IMG/VR virus record: IMGVR_UViG_3300032285_002993
Coordinates: 1 to 44,214 of that record
DNA from: a virus
Strand: one strand, 5' to 3'
DNA length: 44,214 nucleotides
Below, piece by piece: positions 2,629-8,539 of the stretch. Every line of letters begins with the position of its first letter. The stretch's first letter is position 1. The position numbers and the translations under genes are program-made. The notes under the pieces were generated by a model. The model saw only the letters and a program-made list of their open reading frames with translations, made no database searches and was not told the DNA's origin.

Positions 2629-2643
2629 AGTGTTATTTGTCAA
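2615..2643 (-). promoter_or_regulatory. Sigma70-type promoter candidate, TTGACA-17-TAAACT
   Basis: Read on the minus strand, a perfect TTGACA (2638-2643) is followed after 17 bases by TAAACT (2615-2620), with TGC directly before the -10 box (extended -10). It sits at the RuvC/HTH gene junction and would transcribe the HTH, membrane peptide, DUF3310, TerS and TerL genes. The same hexamer pair with the same AAT after TTGACA recurs at 12826-12855. The predicted start point is inside the first codons of the HTH frame. Confidence 0.6.
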
Positions 2644-3223
2644 CCCCCATTGCCTTACCCCAGTTTTTTATAGCCCAATGCCCAATGCCACAAGCATCTG
2701 CAACATCATTATCAGTAATAGTTTTATCATACTGAATATTAATAAAATTTATAGTTCTTTGTTTGCGTAGTTCTCGCTCATAAGTTTTAAGCCAAGAATC
2801 AGACTTACCAGGATTTTGAGATTTAATATATAATTTTTCATCTTTAGAAATCTTTTTATTGCCAATAAAGTTCTGCCAAGTAATTGGTGCAACTTTGCCT
2901 ATAACTCTAATACCAGCCTGACCTGCTGCACCTAATAAAGCACCTTGAACTAAAGCAAGATCAGCAGCAGTCTTAGGACTATTCATAAATACTGTATGCT
3001 CAATTACAATAGCATCAACATTGACTATATGATCAAACAGACCTTTAGACTTTCTGCCAGCATCAATTACTTTTTCATAAATATCCTTGCCTTCAAACTT
3101 AATCTTACCTACTTCTTTTAAATGACCACCATGAAATGTAGCAAAAGCAAGATTGTTGGTGCTTGCATCTATAGCACAAATACGTTCTGGCATAATCTCT
3201 ACGCCCCACTTATTTTTTACCAT
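2633..3223 (-). CDS. RuvC-like Holliday junction resolvase
   Basis: A probable RNase H-fold resolvase that cuts branched DNA during recombination-dependent replication or before packaging. The visible acidic residues fit the RuvC pattern: ICAIDAST near the N-terminus, VIEHTVF mid-protein, and TDNDVADACGIGHWA near the C-terminus, with the helix AADLALVQGALLGAA between. Length (196 residues from the ATG at 3223) is close to RuvC. The start is uncertain: 3223 has AAAGG nine bases upstream, while the ATG at 3193 (MPERICAID) places the first Asp at the usual distance from the N-terminus. It overlaps the zinc-ribbon gene by 14 bases and follows a Cas4-like nuclease. Confidence 0.82.
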   Translation of the reverse strand: MVKNKWGVEIMPERICAIDASTNNLAFATFHGGHLKEVGKIKFEGKDIYEKVIDAGRKSKGLFDHIVNVDAIVIEHTVFMNSPKTAADLALVQGALLGAAGQAGIRVIGKVAPITWQNFIGNKKISKDEKLYIKSQNPGKSDSWLKTYERELRKQRTINFINIQYDKTITDNDVADACGIGHWAIKNWGKAMGVDK

Positions 3224-3494
3224 TTGCTATACCTTTAATTTGTTTTAATACTTTTGATACATCAACTGGATTGATGTTGCAGTCAGCACACAATGCATCG
3301 TCATTATAGATTGAAAGAGCATTATTGCAATTCTTACATCTACGATCTTTGCCTTTGCGTTTTTGTCTACGAGAATATACATACCTTTCGGCAATCTTCT
3401 CTTTAGTAGATGCATCTCTGCACTCTACTGAACAATATATCTGATAAGAGATACTTGTGCTGAACTGCTTATCACACCAACTACAATGCTTCAC
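3210..3494 (-). CDS. Small protein with two zinc-ribbon-like Cys clusters
   Basis: A 94-residue basic protein. It starts MKHCSWCDKQF and carries CSVEC at about residues 21-25, giving a first C-x2-C...C-x3-C set. A second set is CKNC (about 53-56) and CADC (about 69-72). A strongly basic segment (RRQKRKGKDRR) separates the clusters. Such proteins usually bind nucleic acid or partner proteins through structural zinc. It overlaps the Cas4-like gene upstream by 14 bases and the RuvC-like gene downstream by 14, so it probably works with these nucleases. No catalytic residues are visible; HNH-type activity is not supported. Confidence 0.75.
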   Translation of the reverse strand: MKHCSWCDKQFSTSISYQIYCSVECRDASTKEKIAERYVYSRRQKRKGKDRRCKNCNNALSIYNDDALCADCNINPVDVSKVLKQIKGIANGKK

Positions 3495-4269
3495 CTAACG
3501 GCTCCAAGGATTTTAATTTCATCTCCCCAGGACCAGCAGACTCGCATGCCTTTTTAATAGGACACGATTTGCATATTTTTGAGTTTGATCTATAGTTTTT
3601 TGTAGGGAGGGTTCTGTCGACCCAAGCCTTTCTAACTGACCTCATCCACTCAAAGGCATTGTCTACCCACTGGCGGTAATGATCGTTCACTTCTACTGGC
3701 AACAACAATAATTCATGGTTGTTCTTGTTTTCATAGATTAGTACTGCTTTTTTCTTTTTTAGAATTTTCATATAGATAAGCAATTGAATAAGGTGACCAG
3801 TTTTTGGTTTACCACTTGCTTTTCTATATTCAAAACCCTCATTCATCATTGTCTTAATTTCACCTAGAAGTTCTTCTCCTTGCCAATTAAGCATGACATC
3901 GCCATATCCAAAAATTGGTGGATCTGTATAGGTTATTTTAAATTCGTCTTCAATAAGAATCCCTGCATCTCTCATTGCAGTTTGAATTCTCCCATGAGAT
4001 AGTGTTCCTGCAGTCATATTTGCTGCACCGTAGGCATCCGCATTGTCCTCAAATGTCTGACCATCAAATGCTAGATACCAATATCTTGGACATTCTCCAT
4101 GACCATAAGCAATTGTTGAAGGAGCAAATGTTTTCTTTTGTGTATGCTTATCTACACGATTAATAATGTATCCATGTTCAATTGCTTTTGTAAGCCCCGC
4201 AACATCCATAGGGTGGATGGGCTTCTCTTCTGCCTTAATCATAACCGTACTTAATAAATTTTTTGTCAT
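3481..4269 (-). CDS. Cas4/RecB-like PD-(D/E)XK exonuclease
   Basis: A 262-residue nuclease candidate of the PD-(D/E)XK superfamily, likely processing DNA ends for recombination or replication. The core shows GYGDVMLNW (catalytic Asp) followed by LLGEIKTM (E-x-K) and then a QLLIYMKIL helix that fits the downstream Gln motif. One Cys in the N-terminal half (GECPRYWY) and three in the C-terminal CKSCPIKKAC match the four-Cys iron-sulfur cluster layout of Cas4. There are no other CRISPR genes nearby, and Cas4-like nucleases are common in phages as stand-alone genes. The ATG at 4269 has only weak ribosome-binding complementarity; a second ATG lies at 4242. Confidence 0.85.
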   Translation of the reverse strand: MTKNLLSTVMIKAEEKPIHPMDVAGLTKAIEHGYIINRVDKHTQKKTFAPSTIAYGHGECPRYWYLAFDGQTFEDNADAYGAANMTAGTLSHGRIQTAMRDAGILIEDEFKITYTDPPIFGYGDVMLNWQGEELLGEIKTMMNEGFEYRKASGKPKTGHLIQLLIYMKILKKKKAVLIYENKNNHELLLLPVEVNDHYRQWVDNAFEWMRSVRKAWVDRTLPTKNYRSNSKICKSCPIKKACESAGPGEMKLKSLEPLGEAL

Positions 4270-4307: not shown

Positions 4308-4610
4308 TTAGCGTGTTATGTATTTAAGTGCTGATACAAGATTGTTAATTGCTTCAGCAGCAGTGTAGTAAAGGTTCTTTTTGCCTCTATCTGACTTATC
4401 TACATTTGCCATCCAGGTTGCCCTAAGAGACATTTTGGCTGCAATCGCTTGAAGTCTTACAATTTCAACAGTAACAATGTTGATTGGAATATCTGGTTTA
4501 AGAATAATCTTTGCAATAAAAGTTAGTGCTTGTGTTAGTTCTTCATCATCCATATAGTCTGCAATTTCAGACAGACCATTTACCATATCTAGTGTTGTTT
4601 CATTTGTCAT
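4308..4610 (-). CDS. Unrecognised 100-residue helical protein
   Basis: I do not recognise this protein. It is predicted mostly helical and mildly acidic at the N-terminus (DMVNGLSEIADYMDDEELTQ), with a more basic second half (KSDRGKKNLYYTAAEAINNL). It has no Cys cluster, signal peptide or membrane segment. The ATG overlaps the stop of the last oxygenase paralogue (TAATG), and a 38-base gap with a promoter candidate separates it from the Cas4-like gene, so it ends the transcription block that starts with the oxygenase cassette. Confidence 0.8.
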   Translation of the reverse strand: MTNETTLDMVNGLSEIADYMDDEELTQALTFIAKIILKPDIPINIVTVEIVRLQAIAAKMSLRATWMANVDKSDRGKKNLYYTAAEAINNLVSALKYITR

Positions 4611-5137
4611 TAGTTTCTCTTTTCTATAAATTGAAAAAATATATTTTCTACATATTCTCCATTGTTAAAAATTTTTTCTGGTCTTCCATGTAATTGTTTG
4701 CTTCCTAAAAATGTTAATGCTTGATTATCTTTTAAATAAAAATCTTGATCCTCTACAGTAATTGCCCAATCAGTATTAGACTTATACTGATAGTCAACTG
4801 TATATTTTGTTAATGATCCTCCATCCTTATGCATATGCAATTTTGGAACCAATCCGTATTCATTTGTATATCTAATAATAATTATATCAAAAATTTGCAA
4901 ATTGTCAACTTTAAAAATATCTTCTGCAAATTTTTGAACTTTATATAAAAGATTATTAGGAAAGTTGCCAATAGCATAGTTAGACATTAATTTATCTTGA
5001 ATAACTCCATAATATCTTCCAAGATTTTTTTCAATTGAAAAAAGATTGCTTTTATGTACAACAGATTCTACATAAGTTTCAAGTTGTAATAATTCTTCTG
5101 GCGTATAAAAGTTATTAATTTTCTGGTTGGTCTTCAT
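4610..5137 (-). CDS. 2-oxoglutarate/Fe(II) oxygenase-like protein, copy 4
   Basis: The fourth member of a tandem family with a double-stranded beta-helix signature. The metal site is predicted from HMHKDG (H-x-D) about 100 residues in, followed by DYQYKSNTDWAITVED, LKDNQALTF and the distal HGRP, ending in ENIFFQF. The other three copies have HWR at the distal site; here Trp is replaced by Gly. The position where classical 2-oxoglutarate dioxygenases have Arg or Lys (about ten residues after the distal His) reads NGEYVEN, with no basic residue. I chose the ATG at 5137 (MKTNQKIN, 175 residues), nine bases after GGA; an upstream in-frame ATG at 5158 is possible. It overlaps copy 3 by 23 bases. 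Substrate unknown. Confidence 0.75.
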   Translation of the reverse strand: MKTNQKINNFYTPEELLQLETYVESVVHKSNLFSIEKNLGRYYGVIQDKLMSNYAIGNFPNNLLYKVQKFAEDIFKVDNLQIFDIIIIRYTNEYGLVPKLHMHKDGGSLTKYTVDYQYKSNTDWAITVEDQDFYLKDNQALTFLGSKQLHGRPEKIFNNGEYVENIFFQFIEKRN

Positions 5138-5870
5138 TATATTGTTTCCATGCAGCAATTGATCGTGGATGACTATTAACTTCTATTGCATGTTGTTTTC
5201 TTTTTTCAGGAAAATGTGCAGCATCTATAGGATTCATCTGACCTAAAAATCTATAACTATCTGTTGGACAATAATCAACGCTTAAGATTTCAAGATACTC
5301 CCCTGGTTTAAAGTTTCTTTTTGGTCTCCAGTGAACACTATTTACTGCAGAAAAAACAATTGTTTTTCCAACTGGTAATTCATATCTAATTCCATCAACA
5401 TATAAATCCCAATCTATATTTCCTCCAACATTTGTATTTAGCGTAACCAAATTTTCATCACCATCAATATGTGGGGGAAGCAATGGATTTGTATTTCCAT
5501 CTCCATACTTTAAGTTGTATTCAATATAGTTGTAATGGCATAAAGCAATTGGCTCTTGATATAAAGGCTTTGCAATTAAATCTAATTTTTCTTCAATACT
5601 TTTTGGCATTTCAAATTCAAGAAGCATTCTGGACATGTCTACCGCATGCTTTGGTCTAAATCTGGATCCAGGTTCATTATGGCCATCATCATGTTTTTCA
5701 TTTGGTCCATATAGAATTGGCTTTAATGATTTTCCCTGTTCCCAAATATTCCTAAGTTGTTTCATCTCTTCATCTGAATAAAGATTATCAATATAGAATG
5801 GTAACTCTTTATTATATTTTTCCATAGTTGTAAGCCAATTATGCATTTTACCAACTTGCATGTTATTCAT
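5115..5870 (-). CDS. 2-oxoglutarate/Fe(II) oxygenase-like protein, copy 3 (long form)
   Basis: The largest and most divergent paralogue, 251 residues from the ATG at 5870 (MNNMQVGKMH), which has GGGGGA seven bases upstream. The frame is open further upstream to 6104, but that part lies entirely inside copy 2 and is not conserved, so I reject it. The metal site is LPPHIDGD (H-x-D) and VHWRPKR (distal H-x-R), followed by PGEYLEILSVDY. An N-terminal extension (about residues 1-110) and a C-terminal tail after the fold (FPEKRKQHAIEVNSHPRS) are not present in the other copies. The expected basic co-substrate residue is again missing. It may hydroxylate a protein or nucleotide, or be a catalytically altered member. 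Confidence 0.75.
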   Translation of the reverse strand: MNNMQVGKMHNWLTTMEKYNKELPFYIDNLYSDEEMKQLRNIWEQGKSLKPILYGPNEKHDDGHNEPGSRFRPKHAVDMSRMLLEFEMPKSIEEKLDLIAKPLYQEPIALCHYNYIEYNLKYGDGNTNPLLPPHIDGDENLVTLNTNVGGNIDWDLYVDGIRYELPVGKTIVFSAVNSVHWRPKRNFKPGEYLEILSVDYCPTDSYRFLGQMNPIDAAHFPEKRKQHAIEVNSHPRSIAAWKQYNEDQPEN

Positions 5871-6468
5871 TTTTAAATCCCCCATTTTCAAAAAATATCT
5901 TTTGATATCTTTTTGCTTTAACATCCATAACTGTATTAAAATCATCACTCTTCTTGCCCATTGTTGGATCTGTAAAATGAAAGAATAACATTTCAACATA
6001 TTGATCATCTTCAAAATCTTTTGGGGTTCTCCAATGAATTTGATTAGTACCGCTAAATGTACAAGCATCATTATCTGAAAGCACCATGGCTTTATCTTCA
6101 ACAACGATTTTCCATTCAGTATTTGCTTTTAGTTGATAATCTAAGGTAAAACGCTCTTCCTTAAATGTTTCATCATAATGAGGAAATAGTGCTGGCTTAA
6201 AATGAAAATTACCACAATCGCTAGTGGTATTGTTATATCTTGCATGAACGTATTCAGTTAAAATTAAGTTTTTATTTTCACTTAGATCCCTAGCAATATT
6301 CTCAACCTTGTGAATAATGCTATTCGGCAGTTCGATATATGATTCGTGCATACAATGAACACGAACAAAGTTATTTCCGTGAGATTTTTTTACTGCTAAA
6401 TATATTTGATCAATTTCATCTTTAGAGAAAACTTCTTTAACTATTGTGTTTACAGACTTAATTGTCAT
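5863..6468 (-). CDS. 2-oxoglutarate/Fe(II) oxygenase-like protein, copy 2
   Basis: A 201-residue paralogue. Predicted ligands are FPHYDET (H-x-D) and IHWRTPK (distal H-x-R). Between them are the shared blocks LDYQLKANTEWKIVVED and LSDNDACTFSG, and the fold ends EMLFFHF. The ATG at 6468 follows GGAGAA at normal spacing and overlaps the stop of copy 1 by 11 bases. At its 3' end it overlaps copy 3 by 8 bases, so all copies are translationally coupled. The N-terminal third (VNTIVKEVFSKDEIDQIY) resembles the corresponding part of copy 1 and is probably a helical lid common to the short forms. The reaction is not known. Confidence 0.78.
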   Translation of the reverse strand: MTIKSVNTIVKEVFSKDEIDQIYLAVKKSHGNNFVRVHCMHESYIELPNSIIHKVENIARDLSENKNLILTEYVHARYNNTTSDCGNFHFKPALFPHYDETFKEERFTLDYQLKANTEWKIVVEDKAMVLSDNDACTFSGTNQIHWRTPKDFEDDQYVEMLFFHFTDPTMGKKSDDFNTVMDVKAKRYQKIFFENGGFKNE

Positions 6469-7084
6469 TTGATTCTCCTAACCTATTAACAAAATCTTGT
6501 AATTTATATTGTTTTTCTTTATCAATAACTTGTTCCAAATTGGGTGTATAAAAATCAAAAAAAATCATTTTAACAAAACTATCATTATTCCATTTTATAT
6601 TTGGTCTCCAATGGTACTGAGATAGCGGATAAAAAATTAATGCCTCATTATCTTTTAATTGATAAAGGCCTTCTTCTATTCCTATTGGCCACTCTATATT
6701 GGACTCTAATTGATAATCAATAATAATACCACTTTTTCCATTATCAATATGAACAGGTAATCTTGGTATACCGTTTTTAGCACTATACTCAACATATGTA
6801 ATATTGGTTATAGGATTAAAACTTTTATCCTGAGCATCATAAAGATCATAAAAAATTTTAGTAACTTTATTTGTTATGGTTTCAGGCAATTTTAAATCAT
6901 GCACATCTATTCTTCCTAGATATTCTTTTTTATCTTTTATAAAATTAGATGCTGGATTTGAATCATTTTCTCCGTCTGGGGATTCTTTTAAAACACGACT
7001 AGATAATTCTTTATTAATAATATTTTTAATATAATCAATTTCTACAGAAGAAAAAAGATTTTTAGTTATTTGTACATCATCCAT
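6458..7084 (-). CDS. 2-oxoglutarate/Fe(II) oxygenase-like protein, copy 1
   Basis: First gene of the oxygenase-like cassette, 208 residues from the ATG at 7084 (MDDVQITKNLFSS). The predicted metal ligands are LPVHIDNG (H-x-D) and YHWRPNI (distal H-x-R). The linking blocks are DYQLESNIEWPIGIEE and LKDNEALIF, and the fold ends KMIFFDF. The region is strikingly AT-rich: 6541-6600 has 11 G or C in 60 bases. No Shine-Dalgarno sequence precedes the ATG, but TATAAT ends seven bases before it, so a leaderless transcript is plausible. An in-frame ATG at 7102 also exists inside the end of the preceding gene. The nuclease candidate upstream ends at 7092. Confidence 0.75.
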   Translation of the reverse strand: MDDVQITKNLFSSVEIDYIKNIINKELSSRVLKESPDGENDSNPASNFIKDKKEYLGRIDVHDLKLPETITNKVTKIFYDLYDAQDKSFNPITNITYVEYSAKNGIPRLPVHIDNGKSGIIIDYQLESNIEWPIGIEEGLYQLKDNEALIFYPLSQYHWRPNIKWNNDSFVKMIFFDFYTPNLEQVIDKEKQYKLQDFVNRLGESNDN

Positions 7085-7090
7085 ATTTAT

Positions 7091-7096
7091 ATTATA
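7091..7096 (-). promoter_or_regulatory. -10 candidate TATAAT before oxygenase cassette
   Basis: The minus strand reads TATAAT six bases before the ATG at 7084, across the stop codon of the preceding nuclease gene. The spacing would place the transcription start at or next to the ATG. No clear -35 is seen, and AT-rich context makes chance matches likely. Confidence 0.3.
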
Positions 7097-7400
7097 CACC
7101 ATCTACAAATTGCTCTAATATTGACATCTCAATAAGTGCTAGTCTAACCTTTGTGTTTCCTTCTCCAAGCACTATAACAATTGCTGGATCTTTACCATTT
7201 TTAATTGCATCTGTTGTTGCCTTAGCCCAAACATCTTTATTAATTGTAAAAGATTTTCCTACTTCTTTGAAATCTATTACAAAATTATGCCAAGAGGCAT
7301 CTCCTTTTTGTGTATTTCTTCCAGAATTTTTATGCTGTTTTGCACCTATTCTTTTGCTTTCACTCTTCTCGCTCAAAGTCCTTCTTCTTTCTTCTGGCAA
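7092..7400 (-). CDS. Small PD-(D/E)XK nuclease or resolvase candidate
   Basis: About 94-102 residues. The sequence SGRNTQKGDASW, followed by VIDFKEVGKSF and then WAKATTDAIKNGKDPAIVIV, fits the compact PD-(D/E)XK arrangement of small Holliday-junction-resolvase-like enzymes: acidic Asp in KGD, then D-x-K in IDFK, then the helix and strand that complete the core. The start is uncertain. Only TTG codons are available (7400 or 7376), and both lie inside the end of the zinc-ribbon gene, giving an overlap of 17-41 bases. Its place after RecA and the zinc-ribbon protein supports a recombination role. Catalytic activity is inferred. Confidence 0.6.
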   Translation of the reverse strand: MPEERRRTLSEKSESKRIGAKQHKNSGRNTQKGDASWHNFVIDFKEVGKSFTINKDVWAKATTDAIKNGKDPAIVIVLGEGNTKVRLALIEMSILEQFVDGV

Positions 7401-7536
7401 AACTTACTTTGCTAAGATGCTTTTCTGGACACATCCAAGTAACTTCTTGTGTCTCTGGATAAAGTCTTAAGGTTCCTACTTCTACTTTGCATGTATGGCA
7501 TAAAAATTGTCCACGATAAACTGTGTAGTTAGCCAT
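7360..7536 (-). CDS. Small zinc-ribbon protein downstream of RecA
   Basis: A 58-residue protein from the ATG at 7536, which overlaps the RecA-like stop by 8 bases. It begins MANYTVYRGQFLCHTC with C13-x2-C16, and a second pair is provided by MCPEKH (Cys and His), so one zinc-binding knuckle is likely. The C-terminus is strongly charged (ARRKKKDFEREE). It resembles tiny conserved proteins seen beside recombination genes in other phages, of unknown function. The tight coupling to RecA and to the nuclease candidate suggests an accessory or DNA-binding role in recombination. Confidence 0.78.
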   Translation of the reverse strand: MANYTVYRGQFLCHTCKVEVGTLRLYPETQEVTWMCPEKHLSKVSFARRKKKDFEREE

Positions 7537-8539
7537 TTAATTTGTTCTTTAGTTCTTCTTGCAAACCAAGATCCTCTCTTACTCTGTTGATAAATCCATC
7601 TCTTCCCTGAACCTTAGTACCGTCTGGAAGAAGATACCAAGCACCAGTTCTTTCAACAAGGCCAACTGATTCTGCAGTATCAACCAAATCACCAATTTGA
7701 TCTAATCCTATATGATCTCCCCTAAAGTAAAAATCATATTCTCCTGATTGAAAACCTGGAGATGTCTTAGAAAATTGTAACTCCCACTTAATAGTTCTTC
7801 CAACTTTTTCTTCTATCAACTTATCTCCTACTTGAATCTTGCCCTTAATGGCCTGATTATCTGATTCAGATGAGAATAATTTAATAACGCAAGAAGAATA
7901 GAACTTAGTAGCCTGACCACCAGAAGGCTGCTGGCTAGTATACATAGCATTAATATTATTACGAGACTGAGAAATAAGCACAAGCAAAGTAGGCTTAACT
8001 TTATTATTAGCGTAATTAAGCATCTTCCATGCGTTGCTAAAGTCACGGGATTCTGCTCCAATCTGCTTTGTATTTTCCAAAGCCTTCATCTCATCAGTGT
8101 CCTTTTCAAAATAAATAGCAGGAAGCATTGATGTAATAGAGTCTACCACAATTAAATCAACTCCAGCATTCATAAGTCCAACGCCTACATCTACCATGTC
8201 ACTGATGGTTCTTGCTTGTGAATAAATTAGTTTTTCTGGATCTACCCCCAAAGTTCTTGCCCAGTCCTCTGAGTAAGACATTTCTGAGTCAATCCAAGCA
8301 CATACCTTGCCTTCTGCTTGAGCCATAGCAATCATTTGCAGGCACATAGAGGACTTAGCAGATGACTTGCTACCCCAGATAAGGACCTGTCGTCCGTATG
8401 GCAAACCACCGCCAAGTGCACGATTTAATCCAAAACTAGGAGTTGGTTGGTATTCAAAATTAACCCCTACACCACTACCCAAACGCTTTCTTAGTTTTGG
8501 ATCAAGTTGTGCTAAAACATCATCTACTGTAACAGTCAT
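7529..8539 (-). CDS. recA: RecA/UvsX-like recombinase
   Basis: ATP-dependent strand-exchange protein of 336 residues, expected to form filaments on ssDNA for recombination-dependent replication and repair. The P-loop is GSKSSAKSS at residues 56-64, an unusual version of the bacterial GPESSGKTT, with the Lys and Ser kept. Walker B is LIVVDSI with D133. The region QSRNNINAMYTSQQPSGGQA corresponds to the L1/L2 DNA-binding loops, followed by FYSSCVIKLF. A short C-terminal part (GFINRVREDLGL) completes the protein. The ATG at 8539 follows GGGGTAAG and overlaps the MazG-like stop by one base. It lies between polymerase and nuclease genes. Confidence 0.92.
   Translation of the reverse strand: MTVTVDDVLAQLDPKLRKRLGSGVGVNFEYQPTPSFGLNRALGGGLPYGRQVLIWGSKSSAKSSMCLQMIAMAQAEGKVCAWIDSEMSYSEDWARTLGVDPEKLIYSQARTISDMVDVGVGLMNAGVDLIVVDSITSMLPAIYFEKDTDEMKALENTKQIGAESRDFSNAWKMLNYANNKVKPTLLVLISQSRNNINAMYTSQQPSGGQATKFYSSCVIKLFSSESDNQAIKGKIQVGDKLIEEKVGRTIKWELQFSKTSPGFQSGEYDFYFRGDHIGLDQIGDLVDTAESVGLVERTGAWYLLPDGTKVQGRDGFINRVREDLGLQEELKNKLNG

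What the first reader, a model, noticed from the sequence alone, without database searches (positions are those of the whole stretch)
4610..7084. Tandem cassette of four divergent 2-oxoglutarate/Fe(II)-oxygenase-like paralogues with an altered active site
Four consecutive, translationally overlapping genes share H-x-D, the block DYQ(L/Y)xxNxxW (not in copy 3), a D/GN-rich turn, a distal H-x-R and an EMxFFxF-like end. The H-x-D and distal His fit a cupin-type Fe(II) site. The Arg two residues after the distal His is invariant (HWRP, HWRT, HWRP, HGRP), while the usual Arg/Lys about ten residues after it is replaced by an aromatic/acidic GEYVE-type segment. This suggests an unusual co-substrate or lost 2-oxoglutarate binding. 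Four diverged copies suggest separate substrates or a hetero-oligomer. The cassette lies between recombination genes (RecA, nuclease candidate, Cas4, RuvC), so a DNA or nucleotide modification, or protection from host defence, is conceivable but unproven.
Basis: partly seen in the sequence, partly recalled or inferred. Interest (0 to 1): 0.78.

Follow-up and report, generated by a model that had tools for sequence, protein, structure and literature searches.

The report
Phage iron-oxygenase array mislabelled as ferrochelatase
Four neighbouring phage genes encode diverged copies of one iron-dependent oxygenase-type enzyme with a rearranged active site; relatives are widespread in lake and ocean phages, where databases and papers call them 'ferrochelatase', a label that structure prediction and profile searches contradict.

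Summary
Four tandem, overlapping minus-strand genes (4610-7102) are genuine paralogues with H-x-D, a distal H-(W/G)-R and no Arg/Lys in the last barrel strand. A 101-row family alignment from IMG/VR gives an AlphaFold2 model of copy 2 with pLDDT 95.3. Its nearest solved folds are Fe(II)/2-oxoglutarate oxygenases (6n1f, SnoN, PHD2, AlkB, OGFOD1). Tyr78, His97, Asp99, Trp119, His145 and Arg147 are invariant in all 101 rows. No position of the last strand carries Lys/Arg in more than 16, so the altered anchor is family-wide.

The array sits at a fixed locus (RecA, Holliday-junction resolvase, array, Cas4, RuvC) in 57 contigs, mostly probable actinobacterial phages. It holds 1 to 5 domains, and each window copy has its own orthologous clade.

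The family has no Pfam or NCBIfam entry; 86 of 101 rows match PHROG 2954, named 'ferrochelatase'. The cyanophage 'ferrochelatases' behind that name are homologous, predicted to share the oxygenase fold, and do not match the ferrochelatase profile. Published 'phage ferrochelatase' auxiliary genes are therefore probably oxygenases.

Substrates are unknown. A DNA cytosine or thymidine modification route gets no support: no C5-methylase or thymidylate-synthase gene was found in 20 related records.

The parts
6458..7102 (-). copy 1 (P0001, 214 aa; alternative start ATG 7084): HID, DYQLESNIEW, HWRP
   Evidence: orthologues L009 c1, L012 c1, L014 c2, L015 c1
5863..6468 (-). copy 2 (P0002, 201 aa): Y78, H97-Y-D99, W119, H145-W-R147; modelled at pLDDT 95.3
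   Evidence: PHROG 2954 E 7.9e-8
5115..5870 (-). copy 3 (P0003, 251 aa): HID, NTNVGGNIDW instead of DYQ, HWRP; alternative start ATG 5861
   Evidence: 77% identical to L011 c3
4610..5137 (-). copy 4 (P0004, 175 aa from ATG 5137): HKD, DYQYKSNTDW, HGRP
   Evidence: orthologues L011, L012, L064 c4 and L083
4308..4610 (-). conserved 100-aa gene downstream of the array, PHROG 9818, function unknown; present in 64 contigs of the set
7092..7400 (-). Holliday-junction-resolvase-like gene upstream of the array (PHROG 2002); usual left neighbour in related contigs
7529..8539 (-). RecA/UvsX-like recombinase
   Evidence: phrog_97, 1.5e-56
3481..4269 (-). Cas4-type exonuclease
   Evidence: phrog_1706 3.1e-45, phrog_1990 4.3e-13
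2633..3223 (-). RuvC-like resolvase
   Evidence: phrog_159, 5.1e-20

Best explanation
The cassette is an array of four diverged, probably active Fe(II)-dependent oxygenases of the double-stranded beta-helix fold, a phage subfamily here called HWR. Iron is held by H-x-D and the distal His. The co-substrate, most probably 2-oxoglutarate, is held by the invariant Arg two residues after the distal His instead of the usual Arg/Lys of strand VIII, with the invariant Tyr78 on the pocket wall much like PHD2 Tyr303. The array is expressed with the replication/recombination genes, and each copy hydroxylates its own target during infection. Protein side chains, nucleotides or small molecules are all possible, with protein hydroxylation slightly favoured. 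Shown here: homology, invariant residues, predicted fold, fixed locus, copy turnover, and that the 'ferrochelatase' name does not fit. Inferred: iron and 2OG dependence, the role of the Arg, the timing, and all substrates.
For: Copy 2 model pLDDT 95.3, pTM 0.90. Structural matches are Fe/2OG oxygenases: Foldseek E 5e-6 to 1e-5 for OGFOD1, AlkB-type and PHD2; VIA Z 16.1 over 157 residues (rmsd 2.8) for 6n1f, 15.7 SnoN, about 14 PHD2 and P4H. Y78, H97, D99, W119, H145 and R147 are 101/101. R147 is the only invariant basic residue and strand VIII has none. DSSP puts 145-147 in one strand, so R147 should face the same side as H145. Each window copy falls in its own orthologous clade. Purifying selection: dN well below dS in all usable pairs. 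Array of 1-5 domains at one fixed site.
Against: No biochemistry exists. The canonical strand VIII Arg/Lys is missing. No Pfam oxygenase model matches any of 101 members at E <= 0.01. No substrate evidence of any kind was obtained.
Confidence: 0.68

Rival explanations
1. They are ferrochelatase-type iron-insertion enzymes, as PHROG 2954 and many phage records say.
For: 86 of 101 members match phrog_2954; cyanophage relatives are annotated 'ferrochelatase'.
Against: No member matches Pfam ferrochelatase PF00762, tested at E 0.01 for A4 and 0.1 for the cyanophage set. S-SM1 (174 kb record), which carries two genes so named, has no PF00762 match while 8 control genomes do. S-SM1 061 is predicted as a beta barrel (pLDDT 92.2) whose best solved matches are 2OG oxygenases. 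In Sullivan 2010 the name is only 'Hyp. with ferrochetalase domain' (PMC3037559).
Confidence: 0.02
2. The fold is kept but 2OG is not used: a 2OG-independent iron oxygenase or one using another carboxylate or ketoacid held by Arg147.
For: Family-wide loss of strand VIII Arg/Lys with a new invariant Arg.
Against: An Arg at H+2 lies on the metal-facing side of the same strand and could hold the same carboxylate; nothing in the sequence points to another co-substrate.
Confidence: 0.15
3. Some or all copies are pseudo-enzymes kept as binding proteins.
For: Tandem expansions often include inactive copies; metal-ligand variations occur in potential pseudo-enzymes (PMC4543633).
Against: Metal ligands plus Y, W and R are unchanged in all 101 rows, including all four window copies.
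Confidence: 0.07
4. They act on nucleic acid or nucleotides: AlkB-like repair or base hydroxylation that protects phage DNA.
For: Location between RecA, resolvases and Cas4; AlkB-type folds among matches.
Against: AlkB's downstream 2OG arginines are absent; no C5-cytosine methylase and no thymidylate synthase/hydroxymethylase in 20 related records, all possibly fragments.
Confidence: 0.22
5. They hydroxylate phage virion proteins such as collagen-like tail fibres.
For: Collagen-like proteins of about 245 aa in 7 of 20 related records; in one a second array of three HWR genes begins 1.4 kb away.
Against: None in the window; the main array is not near them; other oxygenases are so common in these phages that the proximity is weak evidence.
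Confidence: 0.1

Closest known systems
PHROG 2954 / T4-GC 615 cyanophage and pelagiphage 'ferrochelatase' (e.g. S-SM1 SSM1_060, SSM1_061)
   Same: Homologous: hhalign 98.6%, E 5e-16 over 113 columns; same Y, H-x-D, W, H-W-R; same predicted fold; also often in tandem pairs
   Different: Only about 20-30% identical; marine set has further invariants (R79, C96, H157); the name 'ferrochelatase' is not supported
PHD2 / prolyl 4-hydroxylases
   Same: Fold, H-x-D...H, Tyr before the H-x-D like Tyr303
   Different: PHD2 binds 2OG by Arg383, nine residues after His374 (PMC8359944); HWR has Arg at +2 and nothing at that place
6n1f, B. pseudomallei 2OG-Fe(II) oxygenase
   Same: Top VIA match of both models (Z 16.1 and 14.0)
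   Different: 12% and 10% identity; function not characterised as far as the entry title tells
BesD/HalB halogenases and their hydroxylase relatives
   Same: Fold, Z about 13-14
   Different: HWR keeps Asp in H-x-D; the BesD-type halogenases lack that ligand (own knowledge); in BesD R218 and R77 are named as salt-bridging succinate C5 carboxylate and substrate (PMC13244439)
2OG-Fe(II) oxygenases PF13640/PF13759 of cyanophages
   Same: Often several per phage genome; S-SCSM1 has 24 (PMC9602691)
   Different: HWR is not matched by these profiles

Membership tests
Fe(II)/2OG oxygenase superfamily | double-stranded beta-helix core | tested here: met
   Predicted structure pLDDT 95.3 and PDB matches; prediction, not experiment
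Fe(II)/2OG oxygenase superfamily | H-x-(D/E)...H metal ligands | tested here: met
   101 of 101 rows
Fe(II)/2OG oxygenase superfamily | basic Lys/Arg for the 2OG C5 carboxylate (position varies between subfamilies) | tested here: inconclusive
   Strand VIII position not met (at most 16/101), but one invariant Arg at H+2 on the presumed metal-facing side; binding not shown
Fe(II)/2OG oxygenase superfamily | turnover of 2OG and O2 | not testable with these tools
   needs assay
Known Pfam oxygenase families (PF13640, PF13532, PF13759, PF05118, PF12851) | profile match of window family members at E <= 0.01 | tested here: not met
   cyanophage set only weak PF13532 0.029 and PF05118 0.066
Ferrochelatase (PF00762) | profile match | tested here: not met
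   with 8 control genomes positive
Ferrochelatase | alpha/beta ferrochelatase fold | tested here: not met
   both models are beta barrels resembling 2OG oxygenases; fold of ferrochelatase from own knowledge
PHROG 2954 | profile match | tested here: met
   86/101 window-family rows and 33/33 cyanophage rows
AlkB family | two downstream 2OG arginines after the distal His | tested here: not met
   no conserved Arg/Lys after R147; AlkB feature from own knowledge
TET/JBP DNA hydroxylases | accompanying C5-methylase or base-J type partner genes | tested here: inconclusive
   no PF00145 or PF00303 in 20 related records, but records may be fragments
2OG halogenases (BesD type) | Asp of H-x-D replaced | tested here: not met
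   Asp99 101/101

The most novel reading that the evidence does not exclude
HWR proteins are a phage-specific branch of the oxygenase fold that anchors its co-substrate from the distal-His strand itself (H-x-R), possibly with a co-substrate other than 2OG, and phages amplify and diversify it as a gene array in the recombination module to modify a set of host or phage targets.
Probability: 0.15. Interest if true: 0.8.

Novelty: new variant of a known kind. Interest (0 to 1): 0.56.

Why it matters
Phage 'ferrochelatase' has been read as an iron/haem auxiliary metabolic gene: pelagiphages (PMC9599517) and seasonal marine viruses (PMC11561400, which names PHROG 2954). If the family is an oxygenase, those conclusions about haem metabolism need revision, and the reported co-location with 2OG oxygenases becomes clusters of oxygenases. 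The H-x-R site is a clear, testable variation of co-substrate binding, and the 1-to-5-domain array gives a natural series for asking what phages do with so many oxygenases, which is an open question.

Tried and rejected
Single-protein scans of IMG/VR with copies 1 and 2 found only the identical 8.2-kb contig L001, and tblastn of copies 1, 3 and 4 against GenBank phages found nothing; the family opened only with the three-copy alignment. The six-sequence alignment A2 was too diverse to scan. Two scans of 84,980 prokaryote genomes found no relative, but the patterns used there were not the most conserved ones, so this is a weak negative. Profile searches of the PDB by sequence gave only sub-threshold P4H and NMAD-1 matches for the window family (E 0.02-0.3) and nothing relevant for the cyanophage set. 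Weak Pfam hits to MRS2-like and GerAC were discarded as below cut-off. No ferrochelatase chain appears among the listed PDB matches of either model. Collagen-fibre hydroxylation was followed and left as a weak lead: oxygenases lie within 7 kb of the collagen-like gene in 5 of 7 records (positions), which their density would largely give by chance. A published correction of the ferrochelatase label was not found, in a library without most subscription journals.

Full report
Observation. The four minus-strand genes lie at 6458-7102, 5863-6468, 5115-5870 and 4610-5137, overlapping at each junction. Copy 2 recovers the other three at E 4.6e-23, 3.4e-15 and 8.6e-13 in the window itself.

Family. 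Curated libraries know nothing of it: no Pfam or NCBIfam match above cut-off. An alignment of three window copies found 158 relatives in IMG/VR, of which 80 loci were kept. Iterated searches gave 174 domains in 167 ORFs on 80 contigs including the window, 101 of them under 90% identity. Six residues are unchanged in all 101: Tyr78, His97, Asp99, Trp119, His145 and Arg147 of copy 2. Arg147 is the only invariant basic residue. In strand VIII, residues 155-166, Lys+Arg never exceed 16 of 101.

Structure. With the 101-row alignment copy 2 folds to pLDDT 95.3, pTM 0.90. Solved matches are Fe(II)/2OG oxygenases: Foldseek OGFOD1, AlkB-type, PHD2; VIA Z 16.1 for 6n1f (157 residues, rmsd 2.8), 15.7 for SnoN, about 14 for PHD2 and a Pseudomonas P4H. 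Residues 145-147 form one strand, so Arg147 should face the metal side as His145 does (inference). In PHD2 the C5 carboxylate of 2OG is held by Arg383, nine residues after His374, and by Tyr329 (PMC8359944). The superfamily normally uses a Lys or Arg for this (PMC4543633).

The ferrochelatase name. 86 of 101 members match PHROG 2954, named 'ferrochelatase'. The cyanophage S-SM1 has two adjacent genes so annotated, next to further 2OG oxygenases. Tblastn of SSM1_061 finds 150 phage records; the annotated hits shown are mostly called ferrochelatase. Thirty-three viral-contig relatives of SSM1_061 share the invariant Tyr, H-x-D, Trp and H-W-R, and have no Lys/Arg at residues 149-159. Profile comparison with the window family gives 98.6%, E 5e-16. 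SSM1_061 is predicted as the same barrel (pLDDT 92.2) with 2OG oxygenases as best solved matches, and a predicted viral structure of the S-SM1 'ferrochelatase' (E3SI68) is itself a match of the copy 2 model at E 1.7e-7. None matches Pfam ferrochelatase, and the S-SM1 record has no PF00762 match while 8 control genomes do. The name was given in 2010 as 'Hyp. with ferrochetalase domain', T4-GC 615 (PMC3037559). Later surveys took it as a haem-related auxiliary gene (PMC9599517, PMC11561400).

Context and evolution. In 57 contigs holding both the RecA and Cas4 genes, the family has 1 to 5 domains, and in nearly all of those laid out it lies at one place in the order DnaE, MazG, RecA, Holliday-junction resolvase, array, PHROG 9818 gene, Cas4, zinc-ribbon gene, RuvC; in some contigs one family gene sits just left of the resolvase, and in L059 it sits right of RuvC. 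Seven ORFs carry two domains. Whole-record searches find up to 8 copies. Window copies 2, 3 and 4 group with the copies at the same place in related phages and copy 1 with first or second copies, so the duplications predate these phages. Pairwise dN is well below dS, with some array members diverging faster in protein than RecA, Cas4 or RuvC; dS is often saturated. WhiB genes in 9 of 20 related records suggest actinobacterial hosts.

What it does. The invariant metal site argues for active enzymes. Separate conserved clades argue that the copies are not redundant. The place among recombination genes fits early expression and would fit a nucleic-acid target, but no C5-methylase and no thymidylate synthase was found in 20 related records, and AlkB's downstream arginines are absent. 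Related records also hold up to seven PF13640 oxygenases, so oxygenase richness is a trait of these phages, as in S-SCSM1 with 24 (PMC9602691). I commit to Fe(II)/2OG-type hydroxylases with the Arg at H+2 as the co-substrate anchor, and leave the substrate open with a slight preference for proteins.

Noticed in passing
L145:3297-5440 (G014 89.3-91.4 kb); also G001 76.8-78.0 kb, G003 31.1-33.1 kb, G015 24.2-25.3 kb, G020 34.1-35.3 kb: A PF13640 2OG oxygenase lies directly beside or close to a carbamoyltransferase (PF02543/PF16861) in several related phages: a possible hydroxylate-then-carbamoylate pair, substrate unknown.
   Followed up: partly
L146:3226-3969 and 5341-7321: A collagen-like protein with 18 G-x-y repeats lies 1.4 kb from a second array of three HWR genes; collagen-like proteins occur in 7 of 20 related records.
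   Followed up: partly
L046:1943-2710: An APS-kinase-like domain fused to a cytidylyltransferase-like domain in a second phage lineage carrying an HWR gene.
   Followed up: no
L018:4314-5639, L020:1410-2678, L023:4704-6038, L041:4314-5642: Two HWR domains fused in one ORF, both with the full set of conserved residues.
   Followed up: partly
L006:1840-2541 (S-SM1 SSM1_058): A protein with 4Fe-4S ferredoxin-like cysteines sits inside the S-SM1 cluster of 2OG oxygenases and 'ferrochelatases'.
   Followed up: no
window 4308-4610: PHROG 9818 100-aa protein of unknown function is the usual right neighbour of the array, in 64 contigs of the set.
   Followed up: no
phrog_3531 (library entry, matched by the cyanophage relatives): A second PHROG (362 positions) is also named ferrochelatase and matches all 33 cyanophage HWR rows; probably the same mislabel.
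   Followed up: no
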